Of a stretch of 64,000 nucleotides of DNA, positions 702-63,916 are shown one piece after another. The DNA comes from Pseudanabaena sp. ABRG5-3 (GTDB lineage: Bacteria > Cyanobacteriota > Cyanobacteriia > Pseudanabaenales > Pseudanabaenaceae), in the NCBI RefSeq assembly GCF_003967015.1, contig NZ_AP017560.1, positions 3,904,048-3,968,047 of the forward strand, read 5' to 3'. The notes under the pieces were generated by a model, which made no database searches, had not been told where the DNA came from, and worked only from the letters and a program-made list of their open reading frames with translations. The position numbers and the translations under genes were made by a program. Within the stretch, counting starts at the first letter, position 1. Every line of letters starts with the position of its first letter.

Positions 702-811
702 GGCTGCCGCTAGTCATGTTAGGACAAAATCAAAACCCAAAAGAGAGTTGCGGTGCTTCGCACCGCAACTCTCTTTTGGGTTTTACGTCCTAATACACTT
801 GGCGGCAACTA
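702..811. repeat. palindromic element, family C (TIR GCCGC..TAGGAC)
   Basis: Outer ends GCTGCCGCTAGTCATGTTAGG and (reverse complement) AGTTGCCGCCAAGTGTATTAGG enclose a perfect stem centred on gtgc-ttc-gcac near 755. A second copy with different stem sequence lies at 33756-33870. A family B end (AAGTAGCTCAGCATA) lies just before it at about 681-695, so elements are nested or abutting here. Confidence 0.75.
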
Positions 812-3414: not shown

Positions 3415-3515
3415 CAGCCTGTTGAGGCTTAAAGTAGTACAGAGAAATTTTTGAAAGCGCAGCGAAGCTGCGCTTTCAAAAATTTCTCTGGTTTTCAAGT
3501 CATCACAAAGTACTG
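3415..3515. repeat. palindromic element, family A (CAG...CTG ends flanked by TA)
   Basis: TA-flanked element starting CAGCCTGTTGAGG and ending GTACTG. It contains the perfect stem CAGAGAAATTTTTGAAAGCG / complement with apex agcgaagct. The same stem base recurs at 10513 and 58717 with different apex bases. Only five bases separate it from the family B element. Confidence 0.7.
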
Positions 3516-10510: not shown

Positions 10511-10590
10511 TTCAGAGAAATTTTTGAAAGCGCGGCTTTGCCGCGCTTTCAAAAATTTCTCTGGTTTTTAATTCAGCTTAAAGCGCTGTA
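10511..10590. repeat. palindromic element, family A
   Basis: CAGAGAAATTTTTGAAAGCG stem with apex CGGCtttGCCG, followed by a short tail ending AAGCGCTG and TA. Same stem base as the elements at 3415 and 58717. Confidence 0.7.
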
Positions 10591-12043: not shown

Positions 12044-12085
12044 AAAAAGGAGGTCGTAGTATCAAGTACTACGACCTCCTTTTTA
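12044..12085. terminator. E2 gene terminator
   Basis: AAAAAGGAGGTCGTAGTA / TACTACGACCTCCTTTTT, 18-bp perfect arms with a short loop, 19 bp after the E2 stop. Confidence 0.75.
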
Positions 12086-17350: not shown

Positions 17351-18781
17351 CTAATCCATCGGTAAAGAATCTACCTTCTTAAATTCTCCATTCCAAGGCG
17401 CGAAGAATGGTAAGAACATCATCCCTGGAATTGCTAATACCAGCGTTAATAGGAAGAACAGCGCCCAACCTTTGCCATCACTGCCAGCAAACCATACGAC
17501 TTGGTTAATGGCATCCCATGAAGGTAAATTGCGCTGAATGAATTGGGCGGACTCTCCAGAAAATGGCGAAGCTAAGAGATCGCGCCCGACGGCAAACAAA
17601 CTTGATAGTAATGCAAACTGAGTTGCCGAAAAGCTAGGGTTGCACAACACCATCAAAAAGCCTAAAAAGCCTGCGGTTCCCAGTCCGCCACAAAAGTTCT
17701 CAACGTTAATGGCAGCAAGCAAAACATAGTCGTTTTTGCCAACCACCGAAATGGCGTAATAGCCAATATTGCTAATCGCTTGCAGAAATCCGAATACCCA
17801 TAGAGACCTATTAACACCGATTTTGCTTAAAATTGCGCCCCCCGCTAAAGTTCCGACAATGGTTGCGACTAAGCCAATCCCCTGACGCACCGTGCCAATC
17901 GTGCCATCATCGAATAGTGTTTTTAAAAATGGAACTGCCATTTTGCCAACCATAGCATCGCTAAATCGATAGAAGATCGTAAACACCAGAATTAGCAATA
18001 CTTTGGTGACACCTAAGCGTTGAAAGAATTCCTGAAAAGGTTTAACTACAGCTTCATCTAAGGATGCGGGTCTTGCCTCAACTTCGGGAGGCTCAGGTGC
18101 AAAGATAGTGGCAATTAGTCCAAGGCTCATCACAATAGCTAGTAAGACATATACCCAAGCCCAACCAAATTTACTAAGGCTTAAACCAGTAAATCCGTTA
18201 TTAAATAGAAACTGTGAAAGCGGCGACTTCCAACTTAATCGAGTTGCTAAATTAAAACCCACAAATCCTGCAAATAGCAGCGCAATTCGATATCCCATTA
18301 CCCAAATACCAATCCCCGCACCTACTTCCTGAACTGCTAATACATCAGTCCGATAAGCATCGATCACAATATCTTGGGTGGCACTAAGAAAAGCAATCAT
18401 CAGAGCTGCGATCGCCAACATTGGTAAAGCAGCATTACGACTAGCCAAATCAAGCTGGTCAATTGTAAACATTTGTAAGGCGATTGCTAAAATAGCAATA
18501 ATCAAACCACCCTGTGTTAGCAAAATCCAGCCTCTGCGCCGCCCTAAAAAAGGTGGTACAAAGCGATCGATCAATGGCGACCATAAAAACTTGAGGGAAT
18601 AGGGCAGTGAAACCAATCCTAGCCAGCCAATCGTACTGAGGTCAAACTTAGCACTGGTAAGCCATGCGCGGAAAGCATCATCGGTGAGGGCATAGGGTAA
18701 ACCTGAGGCAAATCCTAATGCCAAAAGAGCCGCCATTTTGCGACTCTGAAAAACCCGAAAAAATTGGGCGATCGTATTCAT
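17351..18781 (-). CDS. AmpG-like MFS transporter
   Basis: 476 residues, about 12-14 membrane helices. SRKMAALLALGFASGLPYAL near the start, WSPLIDRFVPPFLGRRRGW and SATQDIVIDAYRTDVL are signature segments of AmpG muropeptide permeases (the last is the TQDIxxDAYR motif). AmpG imports anhydromuropeptides for peptidoglycan recycling; in cyanobacteria the substrate is not established. Transcribed divergently from yfr1, with ~30 bp between the start codon and the RNA's 5' end. Confidence 0.85.
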   Translation of the reverse strand: MNTIAQFFRVFQSRKMAALLALGFASGLPYALTDDAFRAWLTSAKFDLSTIGWLGLVSLPYSLKFLWSPLIDRFVPPFLGRRRGWILLTQGGLIIAILAIALQMFTIDQLDLASRNAALPMLAIAALMIAFLSATQDIVIDAYRTDVLAVQEVGAGIGIWVMGYRIALLFAGFVGFNLATRLSWKSPLSQFLFNNGFTGLSLSKFGWAWVYVLLAIVMSLGLIATIFAPEPPEVEARPASLDEAVVKPFQEFFQRLGVTKVLLILVFTIFYRFSDAMVGKMAVPFLKTLFDDGTIGTVRQGIGLVATIVGTLAGGAILSKIGVNRSLWVFGFLQAISNIGYYAISVVGKNDYVLLAAINVENFCGGLGTAGFLGFLMVLCNPSFSATQFALLSSLFAVGRDLLASPFSGESAQFIQRNLPSWDAINQVVWFAGSDGKGWALFFLLTLVLAIPGMMFLPFFAPWNGEFKKVDSLPMD

Positions 18782-18809
18782 ATCAAAGAATTAGACTACA
18801 ATATATATG

Positions 18810-18892
18810 TAAGCGGAGACGCAAGTTTCCGTTCACTCCTCACACCACATTCCGCCTGAGCTTATGAGCAGCAAAGGCGGTTTCTTCTTTTT
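18810..18892 (+). ncRNA. yfr1: Yfr1 small RNA
   Basis: The invariant unpaired motif ACTCCTCACAC lies at 18835-18845. Upstream is a short hairpin CGGAGAC-GCAA-GTTTCCG (18814-18831); downstream is a GC stem CCGCCT ... AGGCGG followed by TTTCTTCTTTTTT, a classical terminator. A TACAAT box at 18797-18802 is correctly placed. Known: Yfr1 is a ~55-65 nt cyanobacterial RNA, often located near trxA, that base-pairs with porin-like mRNAs through this motif. Here trxA is the next gene. The terminator loop is longer than usual and is the first unit of a repeat array. Confidence 0.9.
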
Positions 18893-19131
18893 TGCCTATA
18901 GAAGGCAAATGGGGGTGATGCCTGAGCTTATGAGCATCAGAATATGAGAGTTTCTTATTTTTTGCCTGTGAGAGGCAAATTAGGGTGCTGCCTGAGTTTA
19001 TAAGCATCAGCATATAGAGAGTATTTTGTTTTTTGCCTATGGTAGGCAAATTAGGATGTTGTCTATGCTTATGACTATCAGCATAAGAGAGCTTCTTATT
19101 TTTGCCTGTAGCAGGCAAATTGGGATGTCAC
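18854..19131. repeat. four-unit ~70-bp tandem array grown from the yfr1 terminator
   Basis: Units begin at 18854, 18920, 18990 and 19061 (spacing 66, 70, 71). Each has GCCTGAGCTTATGAGCATCA (degenerate), a T-rich stretch, and TTTTGCCT-N5/6-AGGCAAAT. The first unit contains the terminator of Yfr1. A minus-strand reading frame across it is an artefact of the repetition. Confidence 0.75.
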
Positions 19132-19141
19132 TCAGTAATTA

Positions 19142-19217
19142 CAGATAAATTTTAAAAAGTGACGCTTTGCGTCACTTTTTAAAATTTATCTGGGTTCCAT
19201 CACAGCGCAAAGCACTG
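19142..19217. repeat. palindromic element, family A
   Basis: Flanked by TA. CAGATAAATTTTAAAAAGTG ... apex GACGCtttGCGTC ... complement, then a tail ending GCAAAGCACTG. Its stem base CAGATAAATTTT also occurs at 54630. Confidence 0.7.
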
Positions 19218-19372
19218 TAAATAGAAGGGAACAGCAATTTCAAGCTAGTCTCTATGGTAAGCATAAATGTTACAATTCTGGTTTTTATCAAATTTGGGAT
19301 GCTAACTGTTATACTAGCTACACATAAATTTTGACAGTTAAAAGTTTTTAGTATTTAGGGAGTTAGCAAAGC

Positions 19373-19702
19373 ATGTCATCAGCGATCGCAGTCACAGATG
19401 CTAGCTTTGAGCAGGACGTACTTAAAAGTGACATCCCTGTTCTAGTAGATTTTTGGGCCCCTTGGTGTGGACCATGCCGTATGGTTGCTCCTGTAGTGGA
19501 AGAAGTAGCTGCACAGTATGAAGGCAAAATCAAAGTTTTCAAACTTAATACCGATGAGAATCCTAGCGTAGCTGGACAATATGGCATTCGCAGTATTCCC
19601 ACGCTCATGTTATTTAAGGGTGGTCAGCGCGTGGATGTGGTTGTAGGTGCTGTCCCTAAGGCAACACTGTCTACAACTATTGAAAAGCATTTAGATAGTT
19701 AA
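19373..19702 (+). CDS. trxA: thioredoxin (m/TrxA type)
   Basis: 109 residues with the active site WCGPC (Cys32, Cys35) in [16 protein letters not shown], cis-Pro in [12 protein letters not shown], and the usual C-terminus. Reduces disulfides in Calvin-cycle and other targets using electrons from ferredoxin- or NADPH-thioredoxin reductase. Preceded by a GGAG-like site before ATG 19373. Gene order yfr1-trxA is recurrent in cyanobacteria. A perfect terminator hairpin follows. Confidence 0.95.
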
Positions 19703-19714
19703 TTAATTTTTCGG

Positions 19715-19769
19715 ATCTGCTTACAAAAAAGAGTGGACGCAATGCGTCCACTCTTTTTTGTAAGCAGAT
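19715..19769. terminator. trxA terminator
   Basis: ATCTGCTTACAAAAAAGAGT...apex GACGCaatGCGTC...complement, ~26-bp perfect arms. Confidence 0.8.
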
Positions 19770-33755: not shown

Positions 33756-33870
33756 ATAGCTACAGTCACTTGTCTTAGGACAAATCAAAACCCAAGAATT
33801 GATTGGCGGCGCTCCGCGCCGCCAATCAATTCTTGGGTTTTATGTCCTAGTACACTTGGCGATAGCTATA
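33756..33870. repeat. palindromic element, family C
   Basis: Ends ATAGCTACAGTCACTTGTC...TAGGAC and (complement) ATAGCTATCGCCAAGTGTA...TAGGAC; central stem AACCCAAGAATTGATTGGCG with apex GGCGCtcCGCGCC. Same frame as the element at 702-811 but a different stem sequence. Confidence 0.75.
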
Positions 33871-44086: not shown

Positions 44087-46807
44087 TTATGGAGAGAAGG
44101 GTAGTTTTAGCTCGATATGTAATTTGTTGCCAATTTCAAGGACATTGTTAGTGAAGTCGGTAGTGGCTGCGATCGGTGCAGCGATGACGGAGACTGCTGT
44201 GAGTAGAGCAAGTAGACGTTTTTTGAGTTTGGGAAGACTGCGTTCTCTTTCTGGTTTTTGAATTTCGGCTTCTACGTCATCGATATCGATGGTGATGTCT
44301 TCACGGATGTCGGGTGGGAATTGGGCGGCGGTTTGGCGCATGGTGCTGATGATTTGCAGGAGCTCTACTACGCTTGCGCCGCTTGTTTGGGTGAAGTGTG
44401 AGGCTTTTTGAGTGGCACTGTCTTTGACTTCATTGGCAAAGTTGGCTATATTTGAGCCTTGTAGATTGTTATTAATTTCTGTCATGGGTTTAAAGTCTCC
44501 TTGTTGATTACTATTATAAATTTGGTTGACAATTGTAAAACGATCTTTTTCTATTTCATCTCTTTGTGTCTTCTGACGCAATTCTAGCGATTCGTAACCA
44601 TCTAGCAATTGACGGATATTGATGATGATGTTGAGTTTTCCGATTGGATAGTCCTGAATACCCATTGCTTCAAGCCCAAGTAATTCTTGGTAGTCAAGAG
44701 GTGGATGTTGGGGATGATTGGGGACAGGAACCCATTCAGTGATTTCAAGATTGGGGAGTGTAGAGTGAATTCTTTTGAAAGTATCGCGCAGAATGCCAAG
44801 AAATAAACGACGAGTTTCTTTGCGTCCGCTGATAGTGATGAATATCTTTTTGTCTTCGGGATCGGCTTTGATACGAGCAATGTTGTAGATTTCTTTGTGT
44901 TCTTGGTATAGCAGCATTACACCACTGCGCCAATAGGTTTGATTGTGGATGCGATCATGGGTGAGTATTATGAATCGAGAGATAATACTTTCTGGAAGAA
45001 CTTTGTAATGATATTGAAATTCAAGAATTTCGCCCTGTAGTTCAATATTATCTGGTTGGTCTTTTGGCAAAAGTCCCGCAATTAGGAATTGCGGTGGATT
45101 GCAGGCTAATTCAAAGCCAAGCTCAAACTCTTTCATCAATTCGATTAGATAGCTGTGGCGTTGTGTAGGATATCGCTCTGGATCAAGAATGCGACAGATA
45201 TCAGTTGGAGTGAAGATACCTCTGTTTTTAGTTTTGAGAATGTCGTCACTGAGCAGAGCGTAGATACCTTCTGTGACCCAGTTGGGCTTGAGAACGTTAG
45301 TGTCTTTGAGGATGGGATGATCTCGGAAGTTTAGAACTAATCCGAGACGATGGAGCAAGTCAATAAGTAGTTCTTGGTTTTGTTCTTCGATAATCTTCTT
45401 TGAGTGACAGATATTCAGATAACGATTGTAAGTAATGAAGTCCTCCGTCATACTTTCCAGTTTCTGTTTGACTTCAAACCAAGGAAGGGGAAGAAGATCA
45501 TATATTTCTTTAAGGTTGCTAACTTGCTCAAGAATAGCAGTGCGAAGGTCTTGAATGCCTATATTGTCTTGACAGGAAGTTTCGATAATGGCTTGTATGT
45601 TGGGATATTTTTCGCGCAGTGCTTTTCGGTTGATATCTAGGGGTTGTTCGTCCTTTTTGTTGCCAACGATAATTACAGGAGACTGCCCACCGAAGCTTTC
45701 GATTAGTTTGAGCCAATATTCGATACGATTTTCTTCTTCGCTGGTGCGACAGTTACAGACGAGGAGATAAAGACTGCGTTTAGTCAGGAAAAATTGATGG
45801 GTAGCATGATAAATTTCCTGTCCACCAAAGTCCCAAACATTGAGACGAATTTCTTTAGCATTTATAGTCACTTTCCAAGTTTTACGATTGAGTCCATCTG
45901 TTTGAGGCTCTTTGGGATCATAGACATTATAGATTAGTCTTTTAATTAGGCTGGTTTTCCCAACACTACCTTGTCCTACAAGTAAAAGTTTTGCTTCGTG
46001 TAGTGGTCGAGTTTTGTTTGTGCGAATTTGTTTTAGATAATTAAGAATTTCTTTGGTATTGTTCTTATTACCTGATCTCAGGATTTCTGCTGGAATATTA
46101 GTAACTGGATTACGATCAAGATTAATATTTTTTAGATTAGCTAAGTTAGATAGCACATCAGGGACTTCCTTAATTTTATTATCACTAAGATCGAGAAAAA
46201 TTAGATTGGATAATTTTGCAATCCCTTCAGGAATTTCCTTGATTTCGTTGTCACTCAGATAAAGAGAAGACAGATTGGATAATTCTGTAATAGCTTCAGG
46301 AATTTCTGTGATTTCGTTATAGCGAAGATCGAGCCAAGTCAGATTGATTAATTTGGATATTCCCTCAGGTATTTCCTTGATTTCATTGTTATAGAGATTT
46401 AGCCAAGTCAAATTGGTTAATTTGGCAATTTTATCAGGTATTTTTTTGATTTTGTTATAGTATAAGTCAAGAGAGATGAGATTATTTAAGTTAACAATTG
46501 CATCAGGTATTTCATTAATGTTGTTACTATATATGTAAAGTTGAGTAAGATTAATTAGGTTGGTGATCTCGTCTGGTATCGACTTAATGTGATTTCTAGA
46601 GAGGTCAAGCATAGTCAGATTGGTCAAGTTGGAGATCTCGTCTGGTATCGCAGTGATTTGATTGTCAGCGAGGTCAAGCGAAGTCAGATTTGCTAATTGG
46701 GCGATCTCTGGTGGAATTTTTTCTATTCCTCTTCTTGACAGATTGAGTGCCGTCCAGCCCTCACGCTCCGCTTGTGCGATTATTGCCAATAACTCTGCAT
46801 CAGTCAT
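44087..46807 (-). CDS. Roco protein (LRR-Roc-COR) with C-terminal extension
   Basis: 906 residues. Ten 23-residue leucine-rich repeats, ~17-240 (pattern IPDEISNLTNLTMLDLSRN). Roc GTPase domain ~270-445: P-loop GQGSVGKT (278-285), switch DFGGQE (326-331), NKKD (383-386). COR domain ~460-740. Tail ~760-906 has a NNLQGSNIANFANEVKDS segment, a helical region, and a final hydrophobic helix LLALLTAVSVIAAPIAA. Roco proteins are GTPases related to human LRRK2; bacterial members dimerise through COR in a nucleotide-dependent way. Role in cyanobacteria unknown; the LRR suggests a sensor. An LRR-coding minus-strand gene next to toxin-antitoxin and IS elements suggests an accessory locus. Confidence 0.95.
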   Translation of the reverse strand: MTDAELLAIIAQAEREGWTALNLSRRGIEKIPPEIAQLANLTSLDLADNQITAIPDEISNLTNLTMLDLSRNHIKSIPDEITNLINLTQLYIYSNNINEIPDAIVNLNNLISLDLYYNKIKKIPDKIAKLTNLTWLNLYNNEIKEIPEGISKLINLTWLDLRYNEITEIPEAITELSNLSSLYLSDNEIKEIPEGIAKLSNLIFLDLSDNKIKEVPDVLSNLANLKNINLDRNPVTNIPAEILRSGNKNNTKEILNYLKQIRTNKTRPLHEAKLLLVGQGSVGKTSLIKRLIYNVYDPKEPQTDGLNRKTWKVTINAKEIRLNVWDFGGQEIYHATHQFFLTKRSLYLLVCNCRTSEEENRIEYWLKLIESFGGQSPVIIVGNKKDEQPLDINRKALREKYPNIQAIIETSCQDNIGIQDLRTAILEQVSNLKEIYDLLPLPWFEVKQKLESMTEDFITYNRYLNICHSKKIIEEQNQELLIDLLHRLGLVLNFRDHPILKDTNVLKPNWVTEGIYALLSDDILKTKNRGIFTPTDICRILDPERYPTQRHSYLIELMKEFELGFELACNPPQFLIAGLLPKDQPDNIELQGEILEFQYHYKVLPESIISRFIILTHDRIHNQTYWRSGVMLLYQEHKEIYNIARIKADPEDKKIFITISGRKETRRLFLGILRDTFKRIHSTLPNLEITEWVPVPNHPQHPPLDYQELLGLEAMGIQDYPIGKLNIIINIRQLLDGYESLELRQKTQRDEIEKDRFTIVNQIYNSNQQGDFKPMTEINNNLQGSNIANFANEVKDSATQKASHFTQTSGASVVELLQIISTMRQTAAQFPPDIREDITIDIDDVEAEIQKPERERSLPKLKKRLLALLTAVSVIAAPIAATTDFTNNVLEIGNKLHIELKLPFSP

Positions 46808-54603: not shown

Positions 54604-54704
54604 CAGCGCTTTGCGCTTTCTCGAAACCCAGATAAATTTTGAAAAAGCTTGCTAAGCAAGCTTTTTCAAAATTTATCTGTATTACACAAACCCTAAATAG
54701 GCTG
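54604..54704. repeat. palindromic element, family A
   Basis: Flanked by TA. CAGCGCTTTGCGCTTTCTCG, stem CAGATAAATTTTGAAAAAGC with apex TTGCtaaGCAA, and end AAATAGGCTG. Same stem base as 19142 but other arm and apex bases. Confidence 0.7.
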
Positions 54705-58716: not shown

Positions 58717-58792
58717 TAGAGAAATTTTTGAAAGCGCGGCTTTGCCGCGCTTTCAAAAATTTCTCTGTACTACTTCAAAGTTCAATAGGCTG
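58717..58792. repeat. palindromic element, family A
   Basis: AGAGAAATTTTTGAAAGCGC stem, apex GGCtttGCC, tail ending CAATAGGCTG then TA. Confidence 0.7.
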
Positions 58793-62377: not shown

Positions 62378-63916
62378 TCAATTTTGCCATTCCTTTTCGA
62401 TGCGCTCTAGGTCTTTGATTGCGCCGAGTTGTTGATAGATGGTTTTGGCTTTGTCGTAATATTGCTGAGCAAGGGAGAGATTGCCACGTTGTTTTTCGAG
62501 CAAGGCAAAATCAAAACTAACCATAGCTATATCCACGCGATCGCCTAATTCAGTTTTTAATTGCAAAGATTGCCTGTAGAGAGACTCGGCTGCATCCCAG
62601 TTGCCTCGATTGCGCTCAATGTCTCCCAATACTCCCCAAGAACTTGCCATACCATCGCGATCGCCTAATTCAGTTTTTAATTGCAAAGATTGCCTGTAGA
62701 GAGACTCGGCTGCATCCCAGTTGCCTCGATTGCGCTCGATGTCTCCCAATACTCCCCAAGAAGTTGCTATAAGCGAGCGATCATCTAATTCAGTACTCAA
62801 TTGCAAAGATTGCCTGTAGAGAGATTCTGCCGCATCCCAGTTGCCACGGTAGCGCTCAATGTCTCCCAATTGTCCCCAAGAAGTTGCCATCATCGAGCGA
62901 TCATCTAATTCAATAATCAATTGCAAAGACTGCCTATAGAGAGATTCTGCCGTGTCCCAGTTACCACGCTCACGCTCGATGTCTCCTAATACTCCCCAGA
63001 TGTAAGCAATACCTCTTCGATCTTCTAGTTTTTCTAGGATTTGTAGGGATTCTTTATAAAGTGATTCCGCTTTATCCCAATAGCAAAGGAACTTATACAT
63101 ATTAGCTAAGCTATTAAGGGAGTAGGTCAGATCGTAGTCACGCTTGAATTTTTTTTGAAGCGTGATCGCCTTATTTAGATAGGTTTTCGCCAACTCAATT
63201 TCAAGCTTTAAATTTTCTGTTTCACCTATACATACTCGCTCAGCATAAGCCCTTCCCAATTGAGCATAAATTGGTTCAATATTGGCGCTATCTTCACCCC
63301 AAGTTGTTAATGCTTCTGCAAGTGAAGATTCTAATTGTTTAATCGAAAGAACCGAACTTGATTTTTGAGGATTATCGATTGGCTTGAATATAGGATCTTT
63401 GCCAGAATCATTAATTGGCAAATTCAACTTCGCAAAGCCAAACTGAAACGTCCCACCACTGCGCCAACTCCAAAAATCGGGCGCTTTTTGGGCGACTTCC
63501 ACTAATACCGCCGAAGGCAACCACAACACCATCGGCAAAGGATAACCCCGCAAAGCCTCTCGCGTCCATTGCAAATAACCCAGAAAGCTATCTAACTTTT
63601 CGCGATTATTCGCCCCCAAATTACTTAACTTCTCGGCTCCCAATACCGTCGCGATCGCTTGTTGATTCATATCAATCTGCCCATCGATCAAAGCCTGCAA
63701 CAAACTCGGCTCATCAGGATTTAACGCTAACCGATAGACCTTTACCCCCTGCGCTCCTAACTCCTGCTCATAGCGACGAATTATCTCCTGCCGCATTGCC
63801 GAGTTATCACATACCGCCAGCAAAACCTGTAAAGTTCCTAAACCAGCCTCAAGGGATACGACCAAGCGATCGTAAACCTTTGCATTTTCGTCATTGAGAA
63901 CGATTAAGTCTGACAT
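62378..63916 (-). CDS. TPR protein with P-loop-like N-terminal domain
   Basis: 512 residues. N-terminal ~180 residues resemble the degenerate AAA/STAND-like domain of cyanobacterial TPR proteins (FLGYLQWTREALRGYPLPMV, WLPSAVLVEVAQKAPDFWSW). The remainder is 40-residue tetratricopeptide repeats (GDIERNRGNWDAAESLYRQS). Several units are almost identical in DNA as well. Likely a protein-interaction scaffold; no catalytic motif seen. Confidence 0.8.
   Translation of the reverse strand: MSDLIVLNDENAKVYDRLVVSLEAGLGTLQVLLAVCDNSAMRQEIIRRYEQELGAQGVKVYRLALNPDEPSLLQALIDGQIDMNQQAIATVLGAEKLSNLGANNREKLDSFLGYLQWTREALRGYPLPMVLWLPSAVLVEVAQKAPDFWSWRSGGTFQFGFAKLNLPINDSGKDPIFKPIDNPQKSSSVLSIKQLESSLAEALTTWGEDSANIEPIYAQLGRAYAERVCIGETENLKLEIELAKTYLNKAITLQKKFKRDYDLTYSLNSLANMYKFLCYWDKAESLYKESLQILEKLEDRRGIAYIWGVLGDIERERGNWDTAESLYRQSLQLIIELDDRSMMATSWGQLGDIERYRGNWDAAESLYRQSLQLSTELDDRSLIATSWGVLGDIERNRGNWDAAESLYRQSLQLKTELGDRDGMASSWGVLGDIERNRGNWDAAESLYRQSLQLKTELGDRVDIAMVSFDFALLEKQRGNLSLAQQYYDKAKTIYQQLGAIKDLERIEKEWQN
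62520..63000. repeat. 120-bp tandem repeats inside the TPR gene
   Basis: Blocks starting near 62521 and 62641 are nearly identical (CGATCGCCTAATTCAGTTTT, then TTGCAAAGATTGCCTGTAGA), with two or more further copies upstream at higher divergence. Unit size 120 bp = 40 codons = one TPR. Confidence 0.8.

What the first reader, a model, noticed from the sequence alone, without database searches (positions are those of the whole stretch)
18810..19131. yfr1 whose terminator seeds a four-unit ~70-bp array
The Yfr1 motif ACTCCTCACAC and its hairpins are clear. Its terminator stem-loop (GCCTGAGCTTATGAGCA...) is the first unit of four degenerate copies at 66-71 bp spacing, each ending in TTTTGCCT-N-AGGCAAAT. 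Possibilities: longer read-through isoforms of Yfr1 with added hairpins, tandem fail-safe termination before trxA, or a protein-binding array.
Basis: partly seen in the sequence, partly recalled or inferred. Interest (0 to 1): 0.65.

Follow-up and report, generated by a model that had tools for sequence, protein, structure and literature searches.

The report
Variable repeat array behind Yfr1 RNA
Behind the small regulatory RNA gene yfr1 of a Pseudanabaena cyanobacterium, the tail of yfr1 has been copied three times and partly a fourth; some relatives carry two to six copies and others none, so it is most likely a fast-changing repeat born by copying errors, possibly catching polymerases that run past the end of yfr1.

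Summary
In detail: yfr1 (18813-18893) is followed by a head-to-tail array (18854-19121, about 70 bp, 3.9 copies) derived from its own terminator tail. Each unit is a U-tract, a 7-bp hairpin TTTGCCT-N5-AGGCAAA and a degenerate copy of the terminator loop. 25 of 26 Pseudanabaena genomes have yfr1; 9 of 25 carry the array (2-6 units), one a remnant, 15 none; presence changes at least 5-6 times on a flanking-gene tree. The exact hairpin and the unit model hit only this locus (26 and 38 genomes searched). Over 29 units hairpin arms and U-tracts vary least; a good stem next to the U-tract survives in 6 of 29. Classical tandem terminators, a general operator and a Yfr1 sponge are disfavoured. Best reading: a slippage-driven, locus-specific variable-number tandem repeat seeded by the Yfr1 terminator, in a genus whose Yfr1 terminator tends to a weaker stem and longer U-tract than other cyanobacteria. 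Main rival: a dispensable read-through buffer of serial U-tract/hairpin signals in an organism without recognisable Rho. No transcript data were available.

The parts
18813..18893 (+). yfr1 small RNA gene: 5' stem 18813-18831, core ACTCCTCACAC 18835-18845, terminator hairpin 18852-18880, U-tract 18881-18893
   Evidence: Rfam RF01116 44.6 bits; coordinates; hairpin -13.2 kcal/mol
18854..19121 (+). tandem array, about 70 bp x 3.9 copies
   Evidence: TRF score 280; repeats
18891..18909 (+). hairpin B1 TTTGCCT-N5-AGGCAAA
18920..18940 (+). copy 1 of the yfr1 terminator loop
18951..18963 (+). U-tract of unit 1
18961..18979 (+). hairpin B2
18990..19010 (+). copy 2 of the yfr1 terminator loop
19022..19034 (+). 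U-tract of unit 2
19032..19050 (+). hairpin B3
19061..19081 (+). copy 3 (most degenerate) of the yfr1 terminator loop
19093..19103 (+). U-tract of unit 3
19101..19119 (+). hairpin B4 (fourth unit, hairpin only)
19142..19192 (.). perfect 24-bp inverted repeat behind the array, similar to dispersed palindromes of the genome; terminator-like by inspection
19301..19318 (+). conserved promoter-like block before trxA (CTGTTATACTA in 25 of 25 genomes)
   Evidence: reading it as a promoter is inference, the promoter scan did not list it
19373..19702 (+). trxA, thioredoxin (WCGPC motif)
   Evidence: ORF; a WCGPC protein lies behind yfr1 in 25 of 25 genus loci

Best explanation
It is a locus-specific variable-number tandem repeat that grew out of the 3' end of yfr1. 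The end of the Yfr1 terminator plus about 25 downstream bases was tandemly duplicated. T-tracts at the unit borders and the hairpin beside them give the microhomology and the fold-back that replication slippage or unequal recombination needs, so units are gained and lost quickly. Derivation from the yfr1 tail, copy-number variation and repeated absence are shown; slippage is inferred. The array lies between the sRNA terminator and the trxA promoter region, where it is tolerated. Each unit adds a U-tract and a small hairpin to any RNA that reads past the Yfr1 terminator, so a mild effect on read-through is possible but not needed.
For: 9 of 25 genomes with yfr1 carry 2-6 units, one (G010) a remnant, 15 none (counted by eye). 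On a tree of flanking coding DNA presence changes at least 5 times (remnant counted as absent) or 6 (as present); G006 and G007, about 0.6% apart there, have 2 and 5 units. Behind its array G004 has the sequence GACTATAAGTG that directly follows the U-tract in array-less G001, G005, G008 and G021, as expected for gain or loss between T-tracts. The unit model finds 28 places in 9 of 38 genomes of the family, all at yfr1. The exact hairpin gives 25 matches (23 places once palindromic double counts are removed) in 9 of 26 genomes, all at yfr1.
Against: In G000 none of 14 arm positions varies among the three full units while 22 of 62 other columns do (Fisher p 0.005, chosen after seeing the data), and over all 29 units arms differ least (0.057 against 0.318 loop and 0.291 rest): a hint of constraint. 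Three units of G022 have a broken hairpin, so a broken hairpin seems not to stop copying. Slippage was not observed. G006 is a draft of 160 contigs, so its count of 2 may be an assembly collapse.
Confidence: 0.5

Rival explanations
1. Read-through buffer: a leaky Yfr1 terminator in a bacterium without Rho is backed up by serial U-tracts (pause and release sites), each followed by a hairpin that could stop 3'-5' exonucleases; the result is a ladder of longer Yfr1 RNAs and an insulated trxA promoter.
For: All 29 units have a T-tract with 9-12 T; over 29 units arms and T-tracts vary least. In Nostoc, strong transcription ended only partly at the Yfr1 terminator (PMC6974561, passages). The Yfr1 stem in 25 Pseudanabaena is mostly weaker (median -13.2, range -14.9 to -10.0) than in 109 other loci (median -18.7, range -22.5 to -11.8 kcal/mol), and its U-tract longer (median 11 against 7 T of 13; 3 of 109 others have 10 or more) (one lineage). 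No rho over the cut-off in this genome: best 33.4 bits against 509. A Synechococcus 3'-end study discusses release at U-tracts without hairpin as a possibility (PMC13289151, abstract and passages).
Against: 15 of 25 genomes with the same kind of terminator have no array. 7 of 30 hairpins have lost at least one pair; the one two-sided change also lost its top pair. Within single genomes T-tracts vary less than the rest in 6 of 9 arrays only, and the hairpin loop is no more variable than the arms in 5 of 9. T-tracts were used to define the units, so their presence in each is partly built in.
Confidence: 0.3
2. Classical tandem intrinsic terminators, each a GC stem directly before a U-tract.
For: The first copy is the Yfr1 terminator itself; 6 of 29 units have a stem of -6 kcal/mol or better beside the U-tract (G000_3, G007_2, G015_1, G022_3, G022_5, G025_2), and 4 of 29 beat 95% or more of 40 shuffles where about 1.5 are expected.
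Against: The median energy of an abutting stem is 0 and most units are no better than shuffles (mean fraction of shuffles as good 0.69; units without any stem count as 1). The terminator scan listed no repeat, but it did not list the Yfr1 terminator either, so it is no test.
Confidence: 0.08
3. A protein-binding array: a dimeric DNA- or RNA-binding protein recognises TTTGCCT-N5-AGGCAAA.
For: Perfect dyad, arms conserved and three central bases free, four times at 69-71 bp in the window.
Against: No other site within one mismatch in the whole genome; exact sites in 26 genomes all at yfr1; missing in 15 of 25 genomes.
Confidence: 0.07
4. A Yfr1 sponge or another RNA partner that pairs with the Yfr1 core.
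For: GGTGT in several linkers could pair with ACACC of the core (by eye).
Against: Predicted duplex energy with the core equals that of shuffled units (mean -8.76 against -8.83 kcal/mol, 29 units).
Confidence: 0.03

Closest known systems
Yfr1 sRNA (Rfam RF01116)
   Same: 5' stem, core ACTCCTCACAC, 3' hairpin with U-tail, upstream of trxA, as described in PMC2190773 (results section)
   Different: In this genus the terminator has a 5-6-bp outer stem with a wide loop and a long U-tract, and in some species a tandem array follows; the repeats lack the core and are not Yfr1 copies
Variable-number tandem repeats of bacterial intergenic regions (general class, recalled)
   Same: Head-to-tail units, copy number differs among near relatives
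   Different: Seeded by the terminator of an sRNA, at one locus only, each unit with a hairpin
REP/BIME repeats behind genes
   Same: Serial palindromes at a 3' end that may affect read-through and RNA decay (functions recalled)
   Different: REPs are dispersed, usually over 100 copies per genome (abstract start of PMC2817692 in a search listing); this one is confined to one locus
Hairpin clusters and tandem terminators
   Same: Several hairpins in a row behind a gene (abstract of PMC8355165)
   Different: The stem before the U-tract has decayed in most units; the intact hairpin lies after the U-tract

Membership tests
Yfr1 (RF01116) | covariance model match over the gathering score | tested here: met
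   44.6 bits, cut-off 38
Yfr1 (RF01116) | core 5'-ACUCCUCACAC-3' between two hairpins, near trxA | tested here: met
   definition from PMC2190773
Yfr1 (RF01116) | expressed RNA of 54-69 nt | not testable with these tools
   no transcript data; 18813-18893 would give up to about 80 nt
Variable-number tandem repeat | head-to-tail units | tested here: met
Variable-number tandem repeat | copy number varies among close relatives | tested here: met
   0 to 6 units among 25 genomes; no strains of one species were available
Tandem intrinsic terminators | stable stem directly before each U-tract | tested here: not met
   6 of 29 units at -6 kcal/mol or better
Tandem intrinsic terminators | transcripts end at the units | not testable with these tools
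   needs term-seq
REP/BIME | dispersed, many loci per genome | tested here: not met
   unit and hairpin only at yfr1
Transcription factor operator | sites at further promoters | tested here: not met
   none within one mismatch in the genome; a factor with this single target is not excluded

The most novel reading that the evidence does not exclude
The array is a length-tunable 3' end: slippage changes the number of U-tract/hairpin units behind a leaky sRNA terminator and thereby sets how much Yfr1 is made as short RNA, as a ladder of longer isoforms with added hairpins, and as read-through into trxA, in a phylum whose termination without Rho is poorly understood.
Probability: 0.12. Interest if true: 0.65.

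Novelty: new variant of a known kind. Interest (0 to 1): 0.38.

Why it matters
Yfr1 is found in nearly all cyanobacteria, and how transcription ends there without Rho is open. A natural series of relatives with 0 to 6 copies of a U-tract/hairpin unit behind nearly the same sRNA terminator is a ready-made dose series for testing whether such units stop, pause or protect read-through RNA. If it is neutral, it is still a compact, fast-changing marker locus.

Tried and rejected
Operator: pattern searches at 0 mismatches in 26 genomes and 1 mismatch in the own genome found only the array. Sponge: duplex energies equal to shuffles. Coding: 20 of 29 unit lengths are not multiples of three and the longest frame over the array has 95 codons; the 92-aa minus-strand ORF was read as chance. 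Dispersed repeat: the unit model over 38 genomes hits only yfr1 at E 0.001 or better, with a pre-filter that scored at most 132 candidates a genome. Background: in a 400-kb sample of the own genome (20 stretches of 20 kb) 7 of the 9 listed TRF rows of period 30 or more lie in frames of 238 codons or more; the other two, at L186, look like a CRISPR array by eye.

Three have the Pseudanabaena-type terminator loop, L069, L116 and L130, all titled Pseudanabaena. A search for repeated 10-mers shows the array in L069 alone. Other flagged loci (L062, L063, L064, L079, L104, L128, L137, L178) were single words or short simple repeats by eye. Nine of the 117 hold little DNA behind yfr1 (match plus downstream of 70 to 314 bases), diverged arrays could be missed, and yfr1 genes with another 5' stem were not sampled. 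In one search, 118 loci outside the genus were usable (L107 is too short) and 9 of these gave no hairpin and are left out of the medians.

Tandem terminators were my first reading and were given up. Covariation over 30 hairpins, 13 distinct, gave 23 intact, 7 with at least one lost pair, one two-sided change: weak support for selection on pairing. The Fisher value of 3.7e-5 on a 42-column block is not used, because the fourth copy is one base out of register in its T-tract there. The whole-region fold (z -5.0) says little, since repeats with dyads fold well by construction.

Full report
What is there. Yfr1 lies at 18813-18893 on the plus strand (Rfam match 18813-18882, 44.6 bits), between a divergent ORF that reads like an MFS transporter (17351-18781, minus; family not searched) and trxA (19373-19702). 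Its terminator is CCGCC-TGAGCTTATGAGCAGCAAA-GGCGG at 18852-18880, followed by TTTCTTCTTTTTT (18881-18893). From 18854 to 19121 the tail is repeated with a period of about 70 bp, 3.9 copies, TRF score 280; in 1000 order-1 Markov copies of 18600-19300 the best score was 51. A unit reads: U-tract; hairpin B, TTTGCCT-N5-AGGCAAA, which borrows the last U's; a linker; a degenerate copy of the terminator loop; the next U-tract. The fourth unit has the hairpin only; behind it comes a perfect 24-bp inverted repeat (19142-19192).

Relatives. 25 of 26 genomes of the genus hold one yfr1; the one without is 76% complete. Named records with the same locus are Pseudanabaena (L069, L116, L130). Nine genomes carry the array: G000 3 full units plus a hairpin, G004 2, G006 2, G007 5, G015 2, G017 3, G018 3, G022 6, G025 3; G010 has a remnant with a palindrome inserted; 15 have none (counted by eye; one search checked the 29 full units against their loci). 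G007 and G022 are single-contig genomes and array-less G005 has 6 contigs, so presence and absence are not only assembly effects; G006 (160 contigs) could be collapsed. From Yfr1 core to the trxA start codon the distance runs from 189 to 688 bases. On a tree of flanking coding DNA the trait changes at least 5 to 6 times. AGGCAAA, the right arm, follows yfr1 in 9 of 9 array genomes and in 1 of 16 others, G016, where it has no hairpin partner by eye. Because all arrays share an arm and linker that are not part of yfr1, I infer one origin and repeated loss; 12 of 22 inner branches of the tree are weakly supported, so this is not shown. Outside the genus I found nothing similar: the unit model hit 28 places in 9 of 38 genomes of the family, all at yfr1 of this genus, and of 117 loci found by an exact yfr1 word only L069 shows the array.

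What is kept. Mean pairwise difference over 29 units: hairpin arms 0.057, T-tract 0.099, hairpin loop 0.318, the rest 0.291. The arm mask gives the lowest value of 73 circular shifts, the next ones close behind at 0.061. In G000 0 of 14 arm columns vary against 22 of 62 others. Within single genomes arms are below 'rest' in 8 of 9 arrays and above it in G018; but T-tracts are below 'rest' in only 6 of 9, and the loop is no more variable than the arms in 5 of 9, so much of the overall contrast lies between genomes. 7 of 30 hairpins have lost at least one pair and only one pair change is two-sided: conservation of pairing as such is weakly supported. A stem of -6 kcal/mol or better directly before the U-tract exists in 6 of 29 units; 4 of 29 beat 95% or more of their 40 shuffles, the rest do not.

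Mechanism. Shown: derivation from the Yfr1 tail, confinement to this locus in what was searched, variable copy number, decay of most terminator stems, retention of U-tracts and of most hairpins. Inferred: that slippage between T-tracts, helped by the hairpin, drives gain and loss. This process would also favour keeping the two parts that are kept, because they are its own machinery, so their conservation does not by itself prove a function for the cell. A function is possible: the Yfr1 terminator in 25 Pseudanabaena has a mostly weaker stem and a longer U-tract than in 109 other loci (one lineage, and the ranges overlap), Nostoc Yfr1 terminates only partly under strong transcription (PMC6974561, passages), the genome has no rho over the cut-off, and a study of Synechococcus 3' ends finds hairpin plus U-tract at only 22% of transcription units and discusses release at U-tracts without hairpin (PMC13289151, abstract and passages). 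Serial U-tracts with exonuclease-stopping hairpins would then buffer read-through before the trxA promoter region. The 15 array-less genomes show that it is dispensable in the genus.

Print. Searches for Yfr1 with cyanobacteria, with Pseudanabaena and with 'repeat', for tandem terminators with tandem repeat and sRNA, for tandem terminators with read-through and fail-safe, for variable number tandem repeats with intergenic, cyanobacteria and hairpin, and for Pseudanabaena with palindromic listed no paper that reports this array, judged by titles and abstract starts of the listed rows; the library holds open-licence papers only. The two papers that hold both Pseudanabaena and Yfr1 (PMC10811720, PMC6256058) have each word once and were not opened. 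Of PMC2190773 I saw the abstract and the whole results section: trxA lies downstream of yfr1 in 27 of 31 genomes there, and I saw no mention of repeats behind yfr1. Of PMC6778093 I saw one passage, of PMC8355165 the abstract.

Verdict. Real, unusual in detail, not new in kind: a variable tandem repeat seeded by an sRNA terminator. Interest 0.38.

Noticed in passing
window 732-784, 3440-3490, 10513-10563, 12044-12084, 19142-19192, 19715-19769, 33787-33841, 54629-54679, 58718-58766 and 8 more: The genome is dense in long perfect palindromes (arms 18 or more, loop 8 or less): 17 in the window and 68 in a 400-kb sample. Two occur as near-identical dispersed families: CAGAGAAATTTTTGAAAGCGC 21 forward and 20 reverse, AAACCCAAGAATTGATTGGCGGCGC 30 forward and 31 reverse arm matches within one mismatch in the genome, none for the control pattern; possibly mobile palindromes that double as terminators. 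Their position relative to genes was not tested.
   Followed up: partly
L015 (G010): In G010 such a palindrome sits inside the remnant array unit, which suggests insertion of the palindrome into an older unit (by eye).
   Followed up: no
window 18852-18880 and 25 genus loci: The Pseudanabaena Yfr1 terminator loop AGCTTATGAGCA is the same in all 25 genomes, while in other cyanobacteria the loop is mostly short and varies (by eye); it may be a second functional site of Yfr1 in this genus.
   Followed up: no
L186 18636-18822 and 19295-19473: Repeats of GTTTCCAATCGATCGCGTCCCCTAGCGAGTAGGAGAC type, by eye a CRISPR array of this genome.
   Followed up: no
window 46158-46708 and 62536-62998: Tandem repeats of 69 and 120 bp inside open minus-strand frames of 923 and 515 codons, so repeat proteins.
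   Followed up: partly
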